A DNA stretch of 64,000 bases, taken from assembly GCF_900099975.1 (NCBI RefSeq), contig NZ_FNEI01000002.1, positions 62,001-126,000 of the forward strand, in the 5' to 3' direction. Shown here one piece after another: positions 7,784 to 21,573 of the stretch; position 1 is the first letter of the stretch, and the number at the start of each line of letters is the position of its first letter. The notes under the pieces are model-generated. The model saw only the letters and a list, made by a program, of their open reading frames with translations, did not search any database and was not told where the DNA came from. Both the position numbers and the translations under genes were made by a program. The DNA is from Arthrobacter cupressi (lineage in GTDB: Bacteria > Actinomycetota > Actinomycetes > Actinomycetales > Micrococcaceae).

Positions 7784-9382
7784 ATGACCACCCAACTCAC
7801 CGAAGACCGTTACGCCGCCATGGTGAAGGGCCACCGCTGGGAGGTTCCGGAGCTCTACAACATGGCCTCCGACGTCGCCGACCGGCACCCGCGGGACAAG
7901 CGCGCCATCATCCTGGACTCCGCCGTCGAAGGCTGCCGCGAAGTCCTCTGGGGCGAGATCCAGGACCGCTCCCGGCAGATCGCCGCCACCCTGCACGCCG
8001 TGGGCGTCAGGAAAGGCGACCGCGTGGCGGTGCTCCTACCGCAGCGCGCGGACACGCCCGCCGCGTACCTGGGCGTGCTGCGCACCGGCGCCATCCTGGT
8101 GACGATGTCGCTGCTCTGGGCCGCCGAGCCCATCCGCTTCCGGCTGGAGGACAGCGGCGCCACCGTGATCATCGCCGAAGGCGCCGCGCGGCACCTTTTC
8201 GAGGGTTACCAGTGCCGCTTCATCGACATCGACAGCCCCGAGATCGCCGCAGCGTCCGCGGAATTCCAGGACGCGGAAACCAGGGCAGACGATCCCGCGC
8301 TGATCTTCTACACCTCCGGCACCACCGGCCGCGCCAAGGGAATCGTCCACGCCCACCGCACGCTCCTGGGCCACAACGAGTTCGAGTACTGCCACAGGAT
8401 CGGCGACGGCGACGTCTTCTACGGCGCGGGGGACTGGGCCTGGTCCATGGCCAAGCTCATGGGCCCGCTGCGGCTCGGCGCCACGCACCTGGTCTTCCGG
8501 CCCGCCGGCGGCTTCGACCCCGCAGCCATGCTGGCCAGCATGAGCCGCCACGGCGTGGACAGCGCCCTGGTCAATCCCACCTTCCTGCGGAAGATGCGCG
8601 AGGACGTGCCCGACGCCGGAACCCGCTTCCCGCTGTCCCTGCGGACGGTCTGTTCCTCCAACGAGCCGCTCACCGCTGAGCTCATTGATTGGTTCCGTGC
8701 GCAGTTCGGCGTGACCCTGCAGGACTACTACGGCTCCACCGAGTCCTACCCCTTGCTCGGCAACTTCCCGGACGTCCCGGTGAAGCCCGGATCCATGGGC
8801 CGCCCGCTGCCCGGCTGGGAGGTGAAGCTGCTGGACGACAACGAACAGGAAGTCCCGCGCGGCGAGGCCGGCGAAGTCTGCCTCCGCGCCCGCTCCAACC
8901 CGCAGTTCCCGCTGGGCTACTGGAACATGCCGGAGGCCTCGGATGCCGCGTTCGGCGGCGACTGGTACCACACCAAGGACCAGGCCTACGAGGACGAAGA
9001 CGGCTACTTCTGGTTCCTCGGCCGCACGGACGATGTCATCAAAACCTCCGGATACCGCGTGGGCCCCTACGAGATGGAAGCCGTGATCCGCGAACTCGAC
9101 GCCGTCCGCGACGTCTCCGTGACCGGCGTTCCGGACGAGCTGCGCGGCCAGTCCGTCAAGGCCTGGATCGAACTTGCGTCGGGGCACTCTTCCGGGCCTG
9201 AACTGGACCGGCAGATCGTGGACCACGTCAAGGAACACTTCTCCCGCTTCGCCTACCCCCGATTCATCGAATACCTTCCCGAGCTGCCAAAATCAGCAAC
9301 CGGAAAGGTCCAGCGCGCTCAACTCCGTGCACTCCCGCACCCCGTCCCTTCTTCTCCCCAACGCGAAGGACAAAACTCATGA
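7784..9382 (+). CDS. Acyl-CoA synthetase / CoA ligase (AMP-forming)
   Basis: Activates a carboxylic acid to its CoA thioester through an acyl-adenylate; 532 aa. The P-loop YTSGTTGRAKG (about residues 174-184), the YYGSTES motif, the hinge region WYHTKDQAYEDEDGYFWFLG and GRTDDVIKTSGYRVGPYE are all present. The C-terminal catalytic lysine lies in PKSATGKVQR. The sequence resembles medium-chain or aryl acyl-CoA ligases more than acetyl-CoA synthetase, but the acid is not clear. The gene starts 12 bp after the crotonase and its TGA overlaps the ATG of the transporter, so the three are co-translated. Confidence 0.9.
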   Translation: MTTQLTEDRYAAMVKGHRWEVPELYNMASDVADRHPRDKRAIILDSAVEGCREVLWGEIQDRSRQIAATLHAVGVRKGDRVAVLLPQRADTPAAYLGVLRTGAILVTMSLLWAAEPIRFRLEDSGATVIIAEGAARHLFEGYQCRFIDIDSPEIAAASAEFQDAETRADDPALIFYTSGTTGRAKGIVHAHRTLLGHNEFEYCHRIGDGDVFYGAGDWAWSMAKLMGPLRLGATHLVFRPAGGFDPAAMLASMSRHGVDSALVNPTFLRKMREDVPDAGTRFPLSLRTVCSSNEPLTAELIDWFRAQFGVTLQDYYGSTESYPLLGNFPDVPVKPGSMGRPLPGWEVKLLDDNEQEVPRGEAGEVCLRARSNPQFPLGYWNMPEASDAAFGGDWYHTKDQAYEDEDGYFWFLGRTDDVIKTSGYRVGPYEMEAVIRELDAVRDVSVTGVPDELRGQSVKAWIELASGHSSGPELDRQIVDHVKEHFSRFAYPRFIEYLPELPKSATGKVQRAQLRALPHPVPSSPQREGQNS

Positions 9383-10701
9383 ACACGCTCACCAGCAACC
9401 CCGTGGAAACGGACGCCTCACCGCGCCGCAGCCTCAAGCGCGTCGCCGCCGCGGCCGCCGTCGGGAACTTTGTGGAATGGTTCGATTCGGCCGCCTATGC
9501 GGTGATGTCCGTGACGATCGCCAAACTCTTCTTCCCGAGCTACTCGACGACGGCGGCCCTGCTGGCCGTGTGGGCGATCTTCGCCGGCGGGTTCATCGCC
9601 AGGCCGCTCGGGGCGGCGTTCTTCGGCCGGTACGGCGACCGGATCGGCCGGAACAAGATGCTGGGACTGTGCGTGTTGATCATGAGCGCGGCGACGTTCT
9701 GCATCGGCATCCTGCCGCCGTTCGCGGTGATCGGCGTCTGGGCTCCGATCCTTTTGTTCATCTTCCGCGCCGTGCAGGGCTTCACCACGGGCGGCGAATA
9801 CACCGGCTCCTCGGCGTTCATCGTCGAATACGCGCCGGCCGGGAAGCGGGCCACCTATGCGAGCGTCATTCCCGCCACCGTGGGCCTGGCCTCCGTGGCC
9901 GGTGCGCTGCTCGGAGCCGCGATCACGGCCACCCTCAGCGCCGAAGACCTGCAGTCCTGGGGCTGGCGCATCCCGTTCCTGCTGGCCGCGCCGCTGGGGC
10001 TGATCGGCCTGTACATCCGCTCCAAGGTGGACGACACCCCGGTGTTCCGCGGCCTGGAGAAGAAGGGCGAGGTGGCGAAGCGGCCGCTTGGCGACGCCGT
10101 CCGGATGTGTGCCCGGCAGATTTTCACGCTCTTCGGGTACAGCATCACCAACGCCGTGGCGTACTACCTGATGAGCAGCTACATGATCGCCTACATGACT
10201 TCGAGCCTGGGCTACACCAGCACCGATTCGATGATCACCAGCATGGTCACCATGCTCGTCTACACCGTCACCTGCCCGCTGGCCGCCCGCGCCAGTGACC
10301 GCTTCGGCCGCAAGACCATGCTCCTGTTCGCCTGCCTGGGCTTCGTGGTGATGACCATCCCGGCGTTCGCGATCATGCCGCTCGGCCTGGGCTGGGCAAT
10401 CGTGGGCACCAGCATCCTGGGCGCCCTGGTGGCGGTGATCGGCACCTCCAACGTTCCCGCTTTGGTGGAGATGTTCCCGTCCTCGGTCCGGGCTTCCGGT
10501 TCGGCGATCGGCTACACCCTGGCCTACGTGCTCTTCGGCGGAACGGCGCCGTTCGTGGCGACGGGCCTCGTGGCCGGCTTCGGTACTCCGCTGGCTCCCG
10601 CGTTCTACCTGATGGGCGTCGCGGTGGTGTCCGCCGTCGTCGTGATCCTGTTCTTCCGCGAGACGAAGAACCTGTCCCTATCACGGACGACGGTGCTGTA
10701 G
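9379..10701 (+). CDS. MFS transporter, metabolite:H+ symporter (MHS) family
   Basis: Twelve-helix inner-membrane transporter, 440 aa. The N-terminus VGNFVEWFDSAAYAV and the loop GRYGDRIGRNKML are hallmarks of the MHS branch (ProP, KgtP, shikimate and benzoate porters), which imports carboxylates with protons. It overlaps the ligase gene by 4 bp (ATGA). It presumably imports the acid that the ligase activates. Transcription ends at the hairpin at 10722-10765. Confidence 0.9.
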   Translation: MNTLTSNPVETDASPRRSLKRVAAAAAVGNFVEWFDSAAYAVMSVTIAKLFFPSYSTTAALLAVWAIFAGGFIARPLGAAFFGRYGDRIGRNKMLGLCVLIMSAATFCIGILPPFAVIGVWAPILLFIFRAVQGFTTGGEYTGSSAFIVEYAPAGKRATYASVIPATVGLASVAGALLGAAITATLSAEDLQSWGWRIPFLLAAPLGLIGLYIRSKVDDTPVFRGLEKKGEVAKRPLGDAVRMCARQIFTLFGYSITNAVAYYLMSSYMIAYMTSSLGYTSTDSMITSMVTMLVYTVTCPLAARASDRFGRKTMLLFACLGFVVMTIPAFAIMPLGLGWAIVGTSILGALVAVIGTSNVPALVEMFPSSVRASGSAIGYTLAYVLFGGTAPFVATGLVAGFGTPLAPAFYLMGVAVVSAVVVILFFRETKNLSLSRTTVL

Positions 10702-11453: not shown

Positions 11454-11659
11454 AGATCAAATATTACAGACAGGACTGGGCGGAGCTAGCCAACCCCGCC
11501 CCGATCTCACGCCGGGGTCATCCTCCTCTGGTTCCGGGTCCCATGACAAAAGCAAACCGGATGGTTTGTTTACGTTTGTCCATGAATTGGCATAACCTCG
11601 TGATGCCGTGCAGGGGCGCATTGCCTGTGCAGGGATGAAGTCAGATTTTGGGGGATGGC

Positions 11660-11926
11660 TTGGAATTGGCTAGGAAACTGAGATGGGCAAATGCCGCATT
11701 TGCGCTCATTGCGATGTTGGCACTCGGAGCGGTCTGCGGTGCCCAGGCTGGTGATGCTCCGGGCGTGCCGTTTGCCGGCCCGCCAATTGCGGCGAACGCC
11801 CAGCCTGTTTTCGAAAGCGGGTGTGGAAGTTTCGCCTCATTGCTGCTGATGCGCCTTGCCCAGCCGGAGGCTGACCAATACCTTGTTCCAGCGGTCCGGT
11901 GTTGGTTCCTTCAGCTACGCCTCTAG
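11660..11926 (+). pseudogene. Decayed tandem copy of the secreted-protein gene
   Basis: This stretch aligns with the intact gene at 12115-12579. It has a matching upstream region (TTGGCATAA, then a G-rich ribosome site), a signal peptide (ARKLRWANAAFALIAMLALG) and the ESGCGSFAS motif that matches GGCGSFAS around C59 of the intact protein. The ATG start is replaced by TTG. After the cysteine motif the frame is lost: the DNA still matches the segment encoding YGVGSIS, but in another frame, and a TAG follows at 11924-11926. The second cysteine and the C-terminal half are absent. A cut-off secreted peptide might still be made, but a dead duplicate is more likely. Confidence 0.7.
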
Positions 11927-12114
11927 ATGCCATTTTGCTTGGAGTTAGTTCCGCCTCTCAACAGGGGGCCTTTAGCTCGAAACGAGCACGCATTTCAAGT
12001 CAAGATGAAACCGGTCGGATGGTTTTGGTTTCTCCATGGATTGGCATAATCTCGAGTTGCCCGCAGGGGCACCTGCTCCGTCCAACGGGCGAAAATCAGA
12101 TATTGGGGGACTAC

Positions 12115-12579
12115 ATGAAAATGGTTAGGAATCTGAAAAAGGCGAGTGCCGCAATTGCACTCACTGCGCTTTTGGCAGTCGGTGTGGCTTCCGGCGCACA
12201 GGCCACCAGCGGTTCGGGGACGGCATATTTTGACAACGGCCAGCCCATAACTGCGAATATGTGGATCCAATCCGTTGCCAAAGGCGGGTGTGGAAGCTTC
12301 GCTTCGTCGGCGGTAATGAACGTTTCGCCGAACTGGATCCGGAACACTACTTCGTTTTACCAGTACGGTGTTGGCTCCATCAGCATCAAGGGCGTTAACG
12401 TTTCGGGCTCCGGAACGAGTAACCCCGCGACAATCCAGTGGACAAACAGCAACGGCGCCAGGGGGTCGTACCTGAGCGGGACTGTTTGCATGGGATGGGG
12501 ATCGTTCTACCTGGGTGCGGACGTAGCGGCAACTGCCTACTACTACGGCAACCTGCGAACTGCTTCCGCGCACGTCTAA
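12115..12579 (+). CDS. Small secreted protein with one cysteine pair, family unknown
   Basis: A 154-aa precursor. Residues 1-30 are a Sec signal peptide (MKMVRNLKK, hydrophobic core, ending ASGAQA), leaving about 124 residues. The mature part is rich in Gly, Ser, Thr and aromatic residues and has only two cysteines, C59 (GGCGSF) and C125 (SGTVCMGW), suggesting one disulfide and a beta-rich fold. The ATG at 12115 is preceded by GGGGGA. The gene heads a cassette with a lipoprotein and an ABC exporter. That layout resembles bacteriocin or secreted-toxin loci with dedicated MacB-like pumps, such as lactococcin 972 loci, but I see no sequence match to that peptide. Function unknown. Confidence 0.75.
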   Translation: MKMVRNLKKASAAIALTALLAVGVASGAQATSGSGTAYFDNGQPITANMWIQSVAKGGCGSFASSAVMNVSPNWIRNTTSFYQYGVGSISIKGVNVSGSGTSNPATIQWTNSNGARGSYLSGTVCMGWGSFYLGADVAATAYYYGNLRTASAHV

Positions 12580-12601
12580 CGAAGAGATCGGCACTGTAGC
12601 A

Positions 12602-14254
12602 GTGAAAACAAGTATGCGTGTTGGTCGTCGCAATTCGAACCGTGCACGGAGCCTCACACGTCTGTCGTTGCTGACCCTGACCGTGCTTGGCTTGGCTGCC
12701 TGCAGTGCCGGTCCTTTCGCGGAAGGCAACGATGTCTCCGCCATTAAGGAAGACCTGGTGAAGCTCCAAGGTGCAAACGGGCTCGTCAGGATGCCCGAAT
12801 CCGCGGGTCAGGAACGTGGAGACCTCTACACGACGGCACTCTATTCGGACGATCTGGGCCCGTCATTGCTAACAGCGGGCGATGCAAGGAAAGTTGTGGA
12901 TGATGACCTGGGCAAGCAGGACACGGCGGATCTATTGACCCTCTGGTCTGCGCTCAAAGTCCTCAAAGCAACGGGCGGAGAGTTGCCTGGGATCTTGGAA
13001 AAGAAGTTGGCAGACGCGGCCATCCCTCCCACGCAACAAGACGTGGGGGCAGAGATTGCCGCCCTCTGGTTTTGGATTGACCTCGGTAGGATGCGTGATT
13101 GGTCGGGTGGTCACCGGTCGGCGCCTGAGCGGGAAGTGGTCTCCCGGCTTAAGTCTGTCGACATAGCGTCCATCAAAGAGAAGCCCTACCTGTTATGGCG
13201 GCTCTTCGATTCATTTGCGGCACTCAAGGTTCAAGGACCTGAAGAATTGGAAGCGGCGCTGAAATCCGTGGATATTAAGAAGCTGCCATCCGACTATGAA
13301 TCCACCCTTGATTTCCAGGCTGCACTTGAAACAAGAATCAAATTCGACCGCGACCTGCTCGTTCCCAATGACGCGAAAGGCCACATCGTTCGAATACTCG
13401 AATCGGGCCAAGTCGATGATGATGCTCTGATCGACTCGATGCTGCGATCCATGGAATTGCTCGACGCCCGTGCCGAACGTCAGCGGATTGTCAAAGAAAA
13501 TGTCGTCTCAAGATTGGATGAAGGGAACGGACTGATTCGCTCGTCTGCCTTGGACAACGGATCAGTCCATGGAACGTACCTCGCTGCAAGACTCCTCGAC
13601 ACTGAATTCCCGGAAGTCGCAGGAGAACAAACCAGGATCCAGCTCGTGCGCGCAATTGAAGATCCCAGGGCAGATGTGATTACCCAACTCAAGGCCCTTG
13701 TCGCCCTGAAGCGCTCGGGATCTGACTCCTGGCGCAACTACTCCGCGGTCGTTCAACGGGGGAGGGTCGGAGTTGCCGGAAAGGTGACCCAAGCCAATTT
13801 GGGTGAATACCTCGAGCTGATCGATGTTTTGGCGCAGCTAGATCCCGACGTGAAGCTTGCCCGGCTCGAACCATTCGGCGCTGACCCCGCGGCAGAAGAA
13901 CCACTTTCCAAGGCACTGTTGGCCCTCACGAATTCGATGTACTTCTCTAACAGTGCGGAAGTGAGATCAATGTTTCCCGCTGTGCAGGCCAAGCTCCCAG
14001 AGCTGATCCGGGGACCCGGATCGAATGGCCTCAACTACTTCCGCGCACTCACGGCGATGACCAGCGCCAGTTTATCCGGCCTGGGCTCTGATGACTTCGA
14101 CGCCGCAGCGGAAGAGCTTCGGAAGCTTAAGGGGTGCAAGGAATTTCCGTCGCTATACCGCCTGGAGCCGGACCCAGATTCACAGTGCAGCCTATCGCTC
14201 TCGGCGGCCATGATCGCCGTTCCCGGTGCCTACAACCTCGGAGACAACAAATGA
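12602..14254 (+). CDS. Large lipoprotein with duplicated helical domain, function unknown
   Basis: Exported lipoprotein of 550 aa with start GTG 12602; an ATG at 12614 is an equal alternative. The lipobox is LAAC, with lipidated C34. The remainder is mostly predicted alpha-helix. Two related segments begin at N59 (NGLVRMPESAGQERGDLYTT) and N309 (NGLIRSSALDNGSVHGTYLA), 250 residues apart, with a third weaker match at N475 (NGLNYF). This pattern suggests two lobes of alpha/alpha repeats of the terpenoid-cyclase/prenyltransferase toroid kind, here probably a binding surface. It starts 22 bp after the secreted-protein gene, and its TGA overlaps the ATPase start. A self-protection or export-docking role is an inference. 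Confidence 0.7.
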   Translation: MKTSMRVGRRNSNRARSLTRLSLLTLTVLGLAACSAGPFAEGNDVSAIKEDLVKLQGANGLVRMPESAGQERGDLYTTALYSDDLGPSLLTAGDARKVVDDDLGKQDTADLLTLWSALKVLKATGGELPGILEKKLADAAIPPTQQDVGAEIAALWFWIDLGRMRDWSGGHRSAPEREVVSRLKSVDIASIKEKPYLLWRLFDSFAALKVQGPEELEAALKSVDIKKLPSDYESTLDFQAALETRIKFDRDLLVPNDAKGHIVRILESGQVDDDALIDSMLRSMELLDARAERQRIVKENVVSRLDEGNGLIRSSALDNGSVHGTYLAARLLDTEFPEVAGEQTRIQLVRAIEDPRADVITQLKALVALKRSGSDSWRNYSAVVQRGRVGVAGKVTQANLGEYLELIDVLAQLDPDVKLARLEPFGADPAAEEPLSKALLALTNSMYFSNSAEVRSMFPAVQAKLPELIRGPGSNGLNYFRALTAMTSASLSGLGSDDFDAAAEELRKLKGCKEFPSLYRLEPDPDSQCSLSLSAAMIAVPGAYNLGDNK

Positions 14255-14913
14255 CTTCGGTCCTACGTTTGGAAAACATTCACAAGTCGTTTGCTGACGA
14301 GGGCGGGCGGCGGCACCAAGTATTGGCCGGCGTCGACCTTCATGTCATGCAAGGGGAGATCGTCTGGCTCCGGGGCGAGTCCGGTTCAGGCAAGTCCACC
14401 ATCCTGAACATTTCAGGCCTGCTCTCCACGCCCGATGCTGGCAGGGTATGGATCAACGGACACGACCGCACCAAGGCATCCCCCCGTGCGGCCGCGACGG
14501 TGCGCTCCAAGGAAATCGGGATGGTCTTCCAGAGCAGCAACCTGCTGCCGGAACTTACCGCACTGGAAAACATCGTCCTTGCCAGCAGTCGGCAGTTGTC
14601 CAGAGAGGCCGTCATGCAACGGCTGGAACGCTTCGGCCTCGCGGCGGTGGCCGACCGGAAAGCCAAAAGGCTTTCGGGCGGACAGCAGCAGAGGGTCGCT
14701 TTCTGCCGAGCCCTCATCAATCAGCCTTCAGTCCTTCTTGCCGACGAGCCGAGCTCCGGCCTCGACGCAAGCAACACCGAGGCCATCCTCGAAGCGATGC
14801 GAAGCGGCGCCGAGAGCGGATGCGGAGTCCTGGTCGCCTCTCACGACGAGGTCTTCAAACACATTGCCCACCGTCAGCTTCCCATGAGCGAGGTACTCGT
14901 TGAACAGGTATAA
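14251..14913 (+). CDS. ABC transporter ATPase, MacB/LolD-like
   Basis: Cytosolic ATPase of 220 aa. Walker A is GESGSGKST (42-50), the Q-loop is VFQSSNLLP (92-100), the signature is LSGGQ (141-145), Walker B ends in D165-E166, and the switch histidine is H198. Length and signature match the LolD/MacB/FtsE group that pairs with FtsX-type permeases rather than with import permeases. The start at 14251 overlaps the lipoprotein stop (ATGA). It couples to the permease immediately downstream, probably for mechanotransmission or export of a cell-surface peptide. Confidence 0.9.
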   Translation: MTSVLRLENIHKSFADEGGRRHQVLAGVDLHVMQGEIVWLRGESGSGKSTILNISGLLSTPDAGRVWINGHDRTKASPRAAATVRSKEIGMVFQSSNLLPELTALENIVLASSRQLSREAVMQRLERFGLAAVADRKAKRLSGGQQQRVAFCRALINQPSVLLADEPSSGLDASNTEAILEAMRSGAESGCGVLVASHDEVFKHIAHRQLPMSEVLVEQV

Positions 14914-16114
14914 GGTATTCACCGGACGAGCGGTGCAGCTTTCACTCTCGAAACTGCGGCCGCTTGCGGTCCTGATGGCCCTTGGCATCGGTGCGTTCGT
15001 TTTTGCGGACAGCGTGGTGGGGGCGGGCATCAGTTCCTATTCCAACAACATCACCACCAACTCGGCCCTGAACTACGTTGAGGTGACGTCGGTGGGCCCG
15101 GATTCTGCCCGCGACATCACTGACAACTCGCTGGCCGAATTCGATCGGATCGAGCACGTCGCCGGTACGTCCGGCTGGGCGCAGATTGACCTGGCCATTG
15201 AGGAGCCCGAGAACTGGCCAACCCCGAACAATCCCGGCGCCTTCACGGGGACGCCGTTCATCAGTGGAATCACCCCGAAGCTGGTGGAGGGAAACCTTCC
15301 CGCAGGCGGACCGGGTGGGAAAGACATTCTCCTTCCTGACATGGGCCAAGGGCAGAGCTATGCGAAGTTCCTCGGCAAGGAAATCGCGTTCGTCTACACG
15401 AAGGAGATTGCTCCGGGCCACGGGGAACCTGCCGCGATCACCCTCCGGGTGGCGGGAATCTATGACAACTCTTCGCCGGGCACGGACGGCGCACAGGCGG
15501 CCTATGTCTCCGGTACCCTGCTCAAGTCCACGCTCTCCAACGCCAGGGATAGCGCCAAGGCAATCACCTTTCCCCGGGCCTATGTCCGCGTCGACTCTGC
15601 CGAGCAGGTGGTGAACGTACAGAACAAAATCCGCGAACTCGGCTATTCAGTCAATAGCGTTGCCGGGCAGATACGTTCGCTATCGGGCCTGTTTGCGCTC
15701 CTTCAGTTGGCCAGTTGGGTGATCGGCGGCGTCCTGGTGATTTTCTGCCTTGGGGTGGGCGTTTCGGTTGGGGGCAGTTGGATCAAGCAGCGTGCACGCG
15801 AGGTGGGCCTGCTCAAGGCAATCGGCTGGTCCGGCGGCTCGATCGCGGGTGTCTACATGGTTGAGCTGGCCGCCGTGGGGCTCATCATCGGCGTCGTCGG
15901 TGCGGCGCTCGGGACGGTGTCTTCGCTGCTTGGCACGGCCGTCTTCAATGGCCTCCAGCTTGAACTCCTGCCGGTTGCGGCCTGGGCGACGCCCAATTGG
16001 CTGCTTGTGGCCGGAGCGCTCCTCTGCGTGCCGCTGTTTCTCTGCGTCGGCGCGGTGGGGCACGTGGCGAGGCTCGCCCGCCTGGACGCGGATTCATCGC
16101 TAAGGGATCTCTGA
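14900..16114 (+). CDS. ABC transporter permease with FtsX domain
   Basis: Inner-membrane partner of the preceding ATPase, 404 aa. There is one N-terminal membrane helix (about 22-44), a large extracytoplasmic domain (about 45-255), then three C-terminal helices of an FtsX domain (LASWVIGGVLVIFCLGVGVS, VELAAVGLIIGVVGAALGTV, LLVAGALLCVPLFLCVGAV). This four-helix plan is the MacB topology. The TTG start at 14900 overlaps the ATPase by 14 bp and has GAGCGAGG upstream; an in-frame GTG lies 11 codons later. No outer-membrane partner is expected in a monoderm. The substrate is probably the secreted protein or its target compound. Confidence 0.88.
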   Translation: MNRYKVFTGRAVQLSLSKLRPLAVLMALGIGAFVFADSVVGAGISSYSNNITTNSALNYVEVTSVGPDSARDITDNSLAEFDRIEHVAGTSGWAQIDLAIEEPENWPTPNNPGAFTGTPFISGITPKLVEGNLPAGGPGGKDILLPDMGQGQSYAKFLGKEIAFVYTKEIAPGHGEPAAITLRVAGIYDNSSPGTDGAQAAYVSGTLLKSTLSNARDSAKAITFPRAYVRVDSAEQVVNVQNKIRELGYSVNSVAGQIRSLSGLFALLQLASWVIGGVLVIFCLGVGVSVGGSWIKQRAREVGLLKAIGWSGGSIAGVYMVELAAVGLIIGVVGAALGTVSSLLGTAVFNGLQLELLPVAAWATPNWLLVAGALLCVPLFLCVGAVGHVARLARLDADSSLRDL

Positions 16115-16160
16115 ACGGGATTCCCGTAGAGCCTGCCCCTAGACGCCCTCCTGAATTGGA

Positions 16161-20256: not shown

Positions 20257-20301
20257 GCTATTACCGCGAAAAATTGACTCGTGCTATCTCTGGGGGAATT
20301 C

Positions 20302-21573
20302 ATGAAACGTACACTGGCCGCGCTGGCCGGCGCCTTCGCGCTTGTGGTTGCGGGGCCTCTGGCCCCGTCGACGGCGGCGACTCCGAGTATTACACCCGCT
20401 CAGGTCACCACCGGATTTTCGGGAATCGCATACGGTTCCTACATTTTCAATTCTGACAAGACCCTTACGTCGGGTCCCACGGCTAATTCATCGATTGGCT
20501 GCACCGGTCTCACGGGGTTGACTTCCAGCAACAGCACCGCAGCTTTGAATGTGCCTGCAGTGGGTGCCGTGGGTGCCGCCGCAACGAGCGTCAGGACGCT
20601 GGAAACGGCGACCGGCAAACGCATCGAAAGCCGGTCTGTTGTGGGCAGCGCCAATCTGCTGGGCGGACTTATCACGGCCGGGACCATTTCGTCCGTGAGC
20701 ATCGCGGACAAGAACACCGCCGGTGCTTTTTCGGGTATCAACCAGACCAACATTGCCAACCTGAAAGTCCTGGGTCTGTCCGTGGCGGCCAACCCGGCTC
20801 CCAATACGGTGATTGACCTCAATGTTCCGCTCCTGGGTTCCCTTGGCAAAATTACGCTGAATGGCCAGGAAAAGAAGCTGGTCAACGGTACTTTCCAGGT
20901 ATCGACGACGGCGCTGCGGGTCGAGGTCCTCAAGGCTGGAATCGCGGGCGTGAAGGCCGGGACGGACATCCGCCTCGGTGTCAGCCTCGCCAAGCTGACG
21001 CCGCCGCAGCTTGGCTACGCCACCGGCGCAGGGTTTACCACCAAGGCCATCCTGGCCACCGGGCTGCTCGGTTCGGGTCCCACCGCCTATGCCGCCCTCA
21101 GCTGCGGCGCCGGGACCCAAACGGTGAACTTGGCCGGAGCCACCGTTCCGGGTCTTGCAACGGTGGGCGCCTCCACGACGACCACCACCACCGTAGTCAG
21201 CCCCGCCGTCAAGGGAACCGTGACGAACTCCCTCGCCGGGCTCAACGTCCTGAGCGGCGTCATCCAGGCTGATGCCATCAAGGCAGAGACCAGCGCAAGC
21301 CGTGCCACCGCGGGCGGCCTGGTCACCCTGACCGACACCTCCACGTTCACCAACCTGAGGATCACCGGCCTGCCGGCGATCAATGCCTCAGTGGCCCCGA
21401 ACACCGTGGTCCAGGTGCCGGGCTTGGGCAAGGTTACTTTGCACAAGGTGACCAAGACCTCCGCGGCAATCATGGTCACGATGGTCGAAATTGTCCTGAA
21501 CCAGTCGATCGGCGGACTGCCGACCGGATCGACCATCCAGATCGGCTATTCAGGCACGGCCATTAGGAACTAG
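20302..21573 (+). CDS. Choice-of-anchor P family exported protein
   Basis: Surface or secreted protein of 423 aa. The signal peptide MKRTLAALAGAFALVVAGPL ends near STAA, and the ATG at 20302 follows GGGGGAA. The mature part holds two copies of one domain. The first contains LLGGLITAGTISSVSI and ANPAPNTVIDLNVPLLGSLG; the second contains VLSGVIQADAIKAET and SVAPNTVVQVPGLGKVTLHK. This is the choice-of-anchor P family as I know it, whose members in other genomes carry varied C-terminal anchors. Here there is no LPxTG and no C-terminal helix, so the protein is probably released or held non-covalently. Function unknown. Confidence 0.75.
   Translation: MKRTLAALAGAFALVVAGPLAPSTAATPSITPAQVTTGFSGIAYGSYIFNSDKTLTSGPTANSSIGCTGLTGLTSSNSTAALNVPAVGAVGAAATSVRTLETATGKRIESRSVVGSANLLGGLITAGTISSVSIADKNTAGAFSGINQTNIANLKVLGLSVAANPAPNTVIDLNVPLLGSLGKITLNGQEKKLVNGTFQVSTTALRVEVLKAGIAGVKAGTDIRLGVSLAKLTPPQLGYATGAGFTTKAILATGLLGSGPTAYAALSCGAGTQTVNLAGATVPGLATVGASTTTTTTVVSPAVKGTVTNSLAGLNVLSGVIQADAIKAETSASRATAGGLVTLTDTSTFTNLRITGLPAINASVAPNTVVQVPGLGKVTLHKVTKTSAAIMVTMVEIVLNQSIGGLPTGSTIQIGYSGTAIRN

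What the first reader, a model, noticed from the sequence alone, without database searches (positions are those of the whole stretch)
11660..16114. Secreted disulfide protein, duplicated-domain lipoprotein and MacB-like ABC pump: possible undescribed secreted-effector system
Four tightly packed genes encode a 124-residue exported protein with one cysteine pair, a 550-aa lipoprotein, an FtsE/LolD-type ATPase and a FtsX permease; the last three overlap. The layout matches toxin/bacteriocin-plus-immunity pump loci, yet neither the secreted protein nor the lipoprotein belongs to a family I recognise. The lipoprotein could be the surface receptor, immunity factor or exporter adaptor.
Basis: partly seen in the sequence, partly recalled or inferred. 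Interest (0 to 1): 0.74.

Follow-up and report, generated by a model that had tools for sequence, protein, structure and literature searches.

The report
Putative new bacteriocin and immunity cassette
A compact four-gene unit, found in a few soil Arthrobacter and in distant form on a Priestia plasmid, makes a small secreted protein of no known family next to a surface lipoprotein and a membrane pump, and looks like a weapon with its own antidote, though no activity has been shown.

Summary
The first two proteins match no library family over its cut-off. In the Arthrobacter group, 7 of 7 loci with an intact secreted gene and readable downstream DNA keep all four genes, in at least three genomic contexts. 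A Priestia filamentosa plasmid has the same order and a homologous, cysteine-free secreted protein. Two decayed copies lost the signal region of the secreted gene together with lipoprotein/ABC parts. Best reading (about 50%): a Sec-exported antibacterial protein with lipoprotein-plus-type VII ABC self-protection, working like lactococcin 972 or SDP/YknWXYZ; the sequence tests for lactococcin 972 membership failed. Toxicity, immunity and target are not shown, and both structure models are too weak to assign a fold. The surveys miss relatives as remote as Priestia's, so "rare" holds for close relatives only.

The parts
11663..11926 (+). broken duplicate of the secreted-protein gene, with a copy of its upstream region from about 11554
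   Evidence: 47% identity to residues 2-71, E 1.4e-8; nucleotide similarity 11554-11748 and 11814-11915 in two pieces; the open frame runs to a stop at 11926
12115..12579 (+). secreted protein, 154-aa precursor, about 124 aa mature, Cys59/Cys125, mostly strands in a low-confidence model
   Evidence: found in 8 of 121 genomes of the genus, own genome included; Priestia homologue P0006
12602..14254 (+). 550-aa lipoprotein, predicted helical, no known family; Cys34, Cys512 and Cys529 invariant in 6 sequences
14251..14913 (+). LolD/FtsE/MacB-type ABC ATPase, 220 aa
   Evidence: GESGSGKST and LSGGQQQR seen in the sequence (motif names recalled)
14900..16114 (+). FtsX/MacB-type permease, 404 aa, four hydrophobic stretches with a large domain after the first
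   Evidence: PF02687 36.8 bits (cut-off 25.5), MacB_PCD 24.6 (cut-off 27); YtrF 1.3e-8; hydropathy

Best explanation
A mobile four-gene antagonism cassette. The small, probably beta-rich protein is exported by the Sec pathway and acts on neighbouring Gram-positive cells at a conserved surface or cell-wall target (inferred). The membrane-anchored helical lipoprotein captures the protein on the producer's own surface (inferred) and works with the ATPase and four-TM permease, a type VII (MacB-like) mechanotransmission ABC pair, to pull it off the membrane or its target, giving self-protection (inferred from the architecture). Shown: the genes, the Sec-type signal and lipobox by sequence, the ABC class, the fixed gene set in different contexts, the distant Bacillota version and two cases of joint decay. 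Not shown: toxicity, immunity, target, or any contact between the parts.
For: The nucleotide block shared with the window starts at 12115 and ends at 16110-16115 for L009, L011, L012, L041 and L043, and starts at 12091 for L013, while flanks differ between the window, L013 and the L009 group. The distribution is patchy: 8 of 121 genomes of the genus (own included, one decayed, one cut by a contig end); for the lipoprotein 2 of 295 family genomes, the own genome and a 24% match with no ABC pair among the ORFs around it. In L014 an internal deletion removes about residues 16-37, the signal region, and another joins lipoprotein residue 271 to ATPase residue 141; in L044 only similarity to residues 83-154 of the secreted protein and 1-154 of the lipoprotein remains in a 12-kb stretch. 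The same gene order stands on a Priestia plasmid with a homologous secreted protein (0 of 5000 shuffles reach the score; hhalign E 1e-6, probability 91%, 139 columns). The ATPases resemble that of the lactococcin 972 set (0 of 300 shuffles reach the score), as many ATPases would. Known parallels: Sec-secreted lactococcin 972-like bacteriocins with presumed immunity/transport genes (passages of PMC4055356 and PMC11796350) and MacB-type YknXYZ protecting against SDP (passages of PMC5985334 and PMC4887032). A Sec signal makes an ABC exporter unnecessary (inference).
Against: No toxin domain and no activity data. The secreted protein is the most conserved part, unlike rapidly diversifying toxins. 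No locus with only the protection genes was seen, as might be expected among resistant relatives; but the class-wide permease search used a strict E of 1e-30 and no genus-wide search with lipoprotein or permease was made. L014 keeps an open permease without the rest. Joint decay is also what loss of any unused operon looks like. The model of the secreted protein is poor (pLDDT 46.7). The second proteins of Arthrobacter and Priestia cannot be aligned.
Confidence: 0.5

Rival explanations
1. Export or surface-assembly system: the lipoprotein and ABC pair mature, release or place the small protein on the cell surface, where it has a structural, adhesive or inhibitor role with no killing.
For: Fixed gene set and strong purifying selection on the secreted protein; LolCDE, of the same ABC class, handles extracytoplasmic lipoproteins (passages of PMC5985334).
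Against: Patchy presence, different contexts, a plasmid home in Priestia and joint decay suggest a dispensable accessory trait; the Sec-type signal suffices for export.
Confidence: 0.25
2. Sensing system: the small protein is a diffusible signal, and the lipoprotein with the type VII ABC pair is its receptor, coupled to a regulator elsewhere.
For: BceAB-type relatives act as sensors (passages of PMC5985334); a highly conserved ligand fits a signal.
Against: No regulator is part of the shared block, which ends with the permease.
Confidence: 0.12
3. Resistance module plus bystander: lipoprotein and ABC pair resist an external cell-wall antibiotic and the small protein is a co-regulated accessory.
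For: The permease and ATPase belong to a class that includes antibiotic-resistance transporters (passages of PMC5985334).
Against: The secreted gene is first in the set and present in every intact cassette seen, including the distant Priestia one.
Confidence: 0.13

Closest known systems
Lactococcin 972 family (Lcn972, streptococcin B) with its membrane protein and ATPase
   Same: Small secreted protein first, then a membrane protein and a LolD-like ATPase on one strand; on plasmid pBL1 as the distant relative is on a Priestia plasmid.
   Different: The secreted protein matches no lactococcin 972 profile and has no significant similarity to Lcn972 (shuffle p 0.1; Priestia 0.25), nor the permease to its membrane protein (p 0.61; Priestia 0.15); that protein has eight hydrophobic stretches against four here; no separate lipoprotein is listed in the pBL1 set (incomplete gene table).
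SDP toxin and YknWXYZ (MacB-type protection pump)
   Same: MacB-type permease with separate ATPase and an extracellular membrane-anchored partner; protection from a secreted toxin is the published role (passages).
   Different: The partner here is a helical lipoprotein with no adaptor (MFP) domain hit; no library hit of the secreted protein points to SdpC; no YknW counterpart lies in the shared block.
LanI lipoprotein plus LanFEG immunity of lantibiotics (recalled; abstract starts in a listing only)
   Same: Lipoprotein plus ABC transporter as two-layer immunity in Gram-positive producers.
   Different: The ABC pair here is of the FtsX/MacB class; no lanthipeptide modification gene is in the shared four-gene block.

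Membership tests
Lactococcin 972 bacteriocin family | secreted protein matches the family profile or Lcn972 itself | tested here: not met
   No lactococcin 972 model among the Pfam or NCBIfam hits of P0001 or P0006 at E up to 10; the few hits to other models are under their cut-offs. Against Lcn972 from pBL1 shuffle p 0.1 and 0.25. PF09683 over cut-off in 0 of 1 own genome
Lactococcin 972 bacteriocin family | associated integral membrane protein like that of pBL1 | tested here: not met
   Permease against the pBL1 protein: 196 of 300 shuffles reach the score; different hydropathy layout
Lactococcin 972 bacteriocin family | ATPase over the L_ocin_972_ABC (TIGR03608) cut-off | tested here: not met
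   151.9 bits against 254.85; Priestia 194.4
Lactococcin 972 bacteriocin family | Sec-type signal on the secreted protein | tested here: met
   hydrophobic stretch 7-25, AQA at 28-30 in the sequence; no signal-peptide program was available
Lactococcin 972 bacteriocin family | beta-sandwich fold | tested here: inconclusive
   Model is mostly strands after the signal helix but pLDDT 46.7
Lactococcin 972 bacteriocin family | lipid II binding and septum inhibition | not testable with these tools
   needs purified protein
Type VII (MacB-like) ABC transporter | FtsX domain; one TM, extracellular domain, three TMs | tested here: met
   PF02687 36.8 bits (cut-off 25.5); hydrophobic stretches 18-37, 261-296, 312-349, 359-377
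Type VII (MacB-like) ABC transporter | MacB periplasmic core domain over cut-off | tested here: inconclusive
   24.6 bits against cut-off 27
Type VII (MacB-like) ABC transporter | separate LolD/FtsE-type ATPase | tested here: met
MacA/YknX adaptor (membrane fusion protein) | adaptor domain in the extracellular partner | tested here: not met
   No Pfam family for P0002 at E up to 10; helical model
Prenyltransferase-like alpha-alpha toroid | PF00432 match | tested here: inconclusive
   Priestia P0007 2.8e-5, 24.1 bits against cut-off 26.5; Arthrobacter P0002 no hit
Bacterial lipoprotein | lipobox cysteine conserved | tested here: met
   Cys34 in LAAC/LPAC/LTAC/LSAC, invariant in 6 of 6

The most novel reading that the evidence does not exclude
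A previously undescribed class of protein bacteriocin spread across two phyla, in which self-protection uses a surface-anchored helical receptor that hands the toxin to a MacB-type mechanotransmission ABC pair, in place of the usual adaptor protein.
Probability: 0.33. Interest if true: 0.7.

Novelty: new variant of a known kind. Interest (0 to 1): 0.5.

Why it matters
If right, it adds a protein bacteriocin family in a soil genus where the passages I read report only a predicted AS-48-like circular bacteriocin (PMC10456417), and gives a compact, non-pathogen system to ask how type VII ABC transporters protect cells from extracellular proteins. The passages read call the role of the equivalent genes experimentally unverified in lactococcin 972 loci (PMC11796350). 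The strongly conserved secreted protein points to a conserved target.

Tried and rejected
Lactococcin 972 membership: rejected on sequence. Solved structures by sequence: nothing credible for either new protein (2 hits at E 0.47-0.61 for the secreted profile, 3 at E 1-1.7 for the lipoprotein profile). Fold of the secreted protein: AlphaFold2 with five near-identical rows failed, so no fold search was made with it. Fold of the lipoprotein: pLDDT 56.4, blocks 91-420 at 54-88; Foldseek against PDB gave 0 matches at E 0.001 or less, best 4.0e-3, helical proteins by their titles as I read them. Plasmids, phages, viral contigs: no homologue other than pBEH6 itself (P0001 and the lipoproteins were not searched in phages). 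Wider actinobacteria: in 394 class genomes only the own genome for lipoprotein, secreted protein and permease (the permease at E 1e-30 only); in 396 phylum genomes 4 with the mixed profile, of which the three besides the own are marginal (E 0.0036-0.0099): two are broken by stops and the third lies in a 457-aa protein with no cassette gene in its 2.8-kb locus. Positive controls failed: the Arthrobacter profiles do not find the Priestia secreted protein or 598-aa protein in their own record, and P0001 alone did not find it among plasmids, so these negatives exclude only close relatives. Homology of the lipoprotein with the Priestia 598-aa protein: not shown (265 of 2000 shuffles reach the score). 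Anti-phage role: nothing for the secreted protein or lipoprotein in PADLOC; hits of ATPase and permease are generic in my reading. Promoter scan: 2 found against 1.4 expected, both on the - strand; terminator scan 8 against 4.6; the gap after the secreted gene folds no better than shuffles (z 0.56): uninformative. Empty-site search with the window's GntR neighbour: only a 35% homologue in 1 of 2 genomes. Literature: by title and abstract start no paper on this cassette appears in the listings (6 of 6 shown; 20 of 160; 12 of 330; 12 of 102; 12 of 196; 8 of 2,721), so most hits were not seen; two papers that name both Arthrobacter and lactococcin 972 were looked at by passages and do not describe it there. 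The library holds open-licence PMC papers only.
Full report
What is there. On the + strand stand a 154-aa precursor (12115-12579), a 550-aa lipoprotein (12602-14254), a 220-aa ATPase (14251-14913) and a 404-aa permease (14900-16114). The spacings are 22, -4 and -14 bases, so one transcript is likely (inference).

Families. Pfam, NCBIfam, PHROGs and PADLOC hold no credible match for the secreted protein or the lipoprotein (the only listed ones are NCBIfam hits of 12.8 and 12.7 bits against cut-offs of 171 and 290), nor do solved structures by sequence. The ATPase is nearest to LolD, DevA, FtsE and the lactococcin 972 group, all below their cut-offs. The permease has an FtsX domain over cut-off, a MacB core domain just under it, and the permease YtrF as the one solved relative at E 0.01 or less.

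Conservation. A scan of genome contigs (one genome for each of 84,980 species) with six peptide patterns of the lipoprotein gave 6 loci, L009-L014; a profile search of the genus with the secreted protein gave 8 of 121 genomes, the own included. Eleven contigs were thus examined, the window included: 7 hold all four genes in order (window, L009, L011, L012, L013, L041, L043); 2 are cut by contig ends (L010 shows the last three genes, L042 only the first); 2 are decayed (L014, L044). I did not test whether L010 and L042 belong to one genome. The nucleotide block shared with the window runs from 12115 to 16110-16115 for L009, L011, L012, L041 and L043, and from 12091 for L013. L014 also shares a separate stretch, window 9044-10701, with the window. 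Flanks differ between the window, L013 and the L009 group. L009, L011, L012, L041 and L043 share flanking DNA, L042 the upstream and L014 the downstream side of it; the neighbours there include hydroxypyruvate isomerase and 2-hydroxy-3-oxopropionate reductase genes (names from my reading of the ORFs, not from a profile search).

Rates. Against the window, amino-acid identity is 87-91% for the secreted protein (4 loci), 62-68% for the lipoprotein, 77-79% for the ATPase and 79-81% for the permease (5 loci each); dN/dS is 0.017-0.042, 0.10-0.15, 0.05-0.10 and 0.06-0.08. Synonymous changes are near saturation (dS 1.6-3.2), so the ratios are rough. Two further pairs were tabulated. In L009-L011 the secreted protein is lowest but by less (0.075 against 0.091 for the permease). 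In L009-L013 its ratio (0.071) is slightly above those of ATPase (0.064) and permease (0.061), although its dN is the lowest there too (0.078 against 0.106-0.195). 107 of 124 mature positions and 18 of 30 signal positions are invariant in five sequences; 275 of 550 in six lipoproteins.

A distant relative. Searching plasmids with the permease gave 1 of 72,556 records: Priestia filamentosa pBEH6 (Bacillota). There the order is a 151-aa secreted protein, a 598-aa protein with an N-terminal hydrophobic stretch, ATPase and permease, then a 345-aa protein that looks like a lipoprotein. The secreted proteins are homologous in my judgement: Smith-Waterman 123 against a maximum of 91 in 5000 shuffles, hhalign E 1e-6 over 139 columns with 35% identity and probability 91%, BLASTP 31% over 118 columns with a single-pair E of only 0.004, plus the shared gene order by which the pair was chosen. 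The permeases align over 398 columns at 23%, single-pair E 1e-18. The two second genes do not align. The Priestia one has a sub-threshold prenyltransferase-toroid hit, and the Arthrobacter one is predicted helical, so they may be analogous or a remote pair; I leave this open. The Priestia protein has no cysteine.

Joint decay. In L014 the secreted gene has an internal deletion of about residues 16-37, most of the hydrophobic signal, and a second deletion joins lipoprotein residue 271 to ATPase residue 141, while the permease stays open. In L044 only a similarity to residues 83-154 of the secreted protein and to residues 1-154 of the lipoprotein remains; no ATPase or permease match lies in the 12-kb stretch. 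Both cases lost an exportable product together with parts of the putative protection module. Two cases are few, and loss of an unused operon would look the same.

How it most likely works. With a Sec-type signal the ABC pair is not needed to export the small protein. MacB-class ABC pairs are described as working on the outer side of the membrane by mechanotransmission (passages of PMC5985334), and such a pair, YknYZ with its adaptor YknX, is reported to protect Bacillus from the SDP toxin (passages of PMC4887032). Lcn972-like bacteriocins are beta-sandwich, thought to be Sec-secreted, and followed by presumed immunity and transport genes (passages of PMC11796350; PMC4055356). By this analogy I read the set as toxin first, then receptor lipoprotein and extruding pump as self-protection. 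Every functional step is inference.

Known or new. It works like the lactococcin 972 and SDP/YknWXYZ systems in this reading, but fails the sequence tests for membership in the former and lacks a hit to the adaptor domain that marks the latter's partner. I call it a new variant of a known kind, with a secreted-protein family in two phyla that the libraries searched do not hold. The literature listings (mostly capped) and passages show no description of it; subscription papers were not searched.

Limits. Negative surveys cover close relatives only, because the Arthrobacter profiles miss the Priestia proteins in their own record. The permease was surveyed at a strict threshold and no genus-wide search was made with lipoprotein or permease, so loci with the protection genes alone could have been missed. 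Structure prediction was limited by few, similar sequences.

Noticed in passing
L025:8682-9566 (strand -): In a 2.2-Mb genome of another genus of the same family, a lone 294-aa lipoprotein-like protein resembles the C-terminal part of the cassette lipoprotein (24% identity, E 5.9e-10); by my reading of the ORFs it sits among helicase and kinase genes without an ABC pair. Pfam gave only a sub-threshold hit.
   Followed up: partly
L026:5833-6870 and L026:992-1510: The Priestia set is flanked by a 345-aa lipoprotein-like protein after the permease and a DUF4825 protein (PF16107, 3.3e-11) before the secreted gene; neither lies in the block shared by the Arthrobacter cassettes.
   Followed up: partly
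L013:2500-4037: The cassette of Pseudarthrobacter sp. HLT1-5 lies near an AfsA-type hotdog protein (PF03756, 4.5e-32) and a TetR regulator, a gamma-butyrolactone-signal-like pair (role recalled); whether it controls the cassette is unknown.
   Followed up: no
window 20281-21573: A 430-aa protein with an export-like N-terminus and, by eye, two similar halves; no Pfam match at E 0.01.
   Followed up: no
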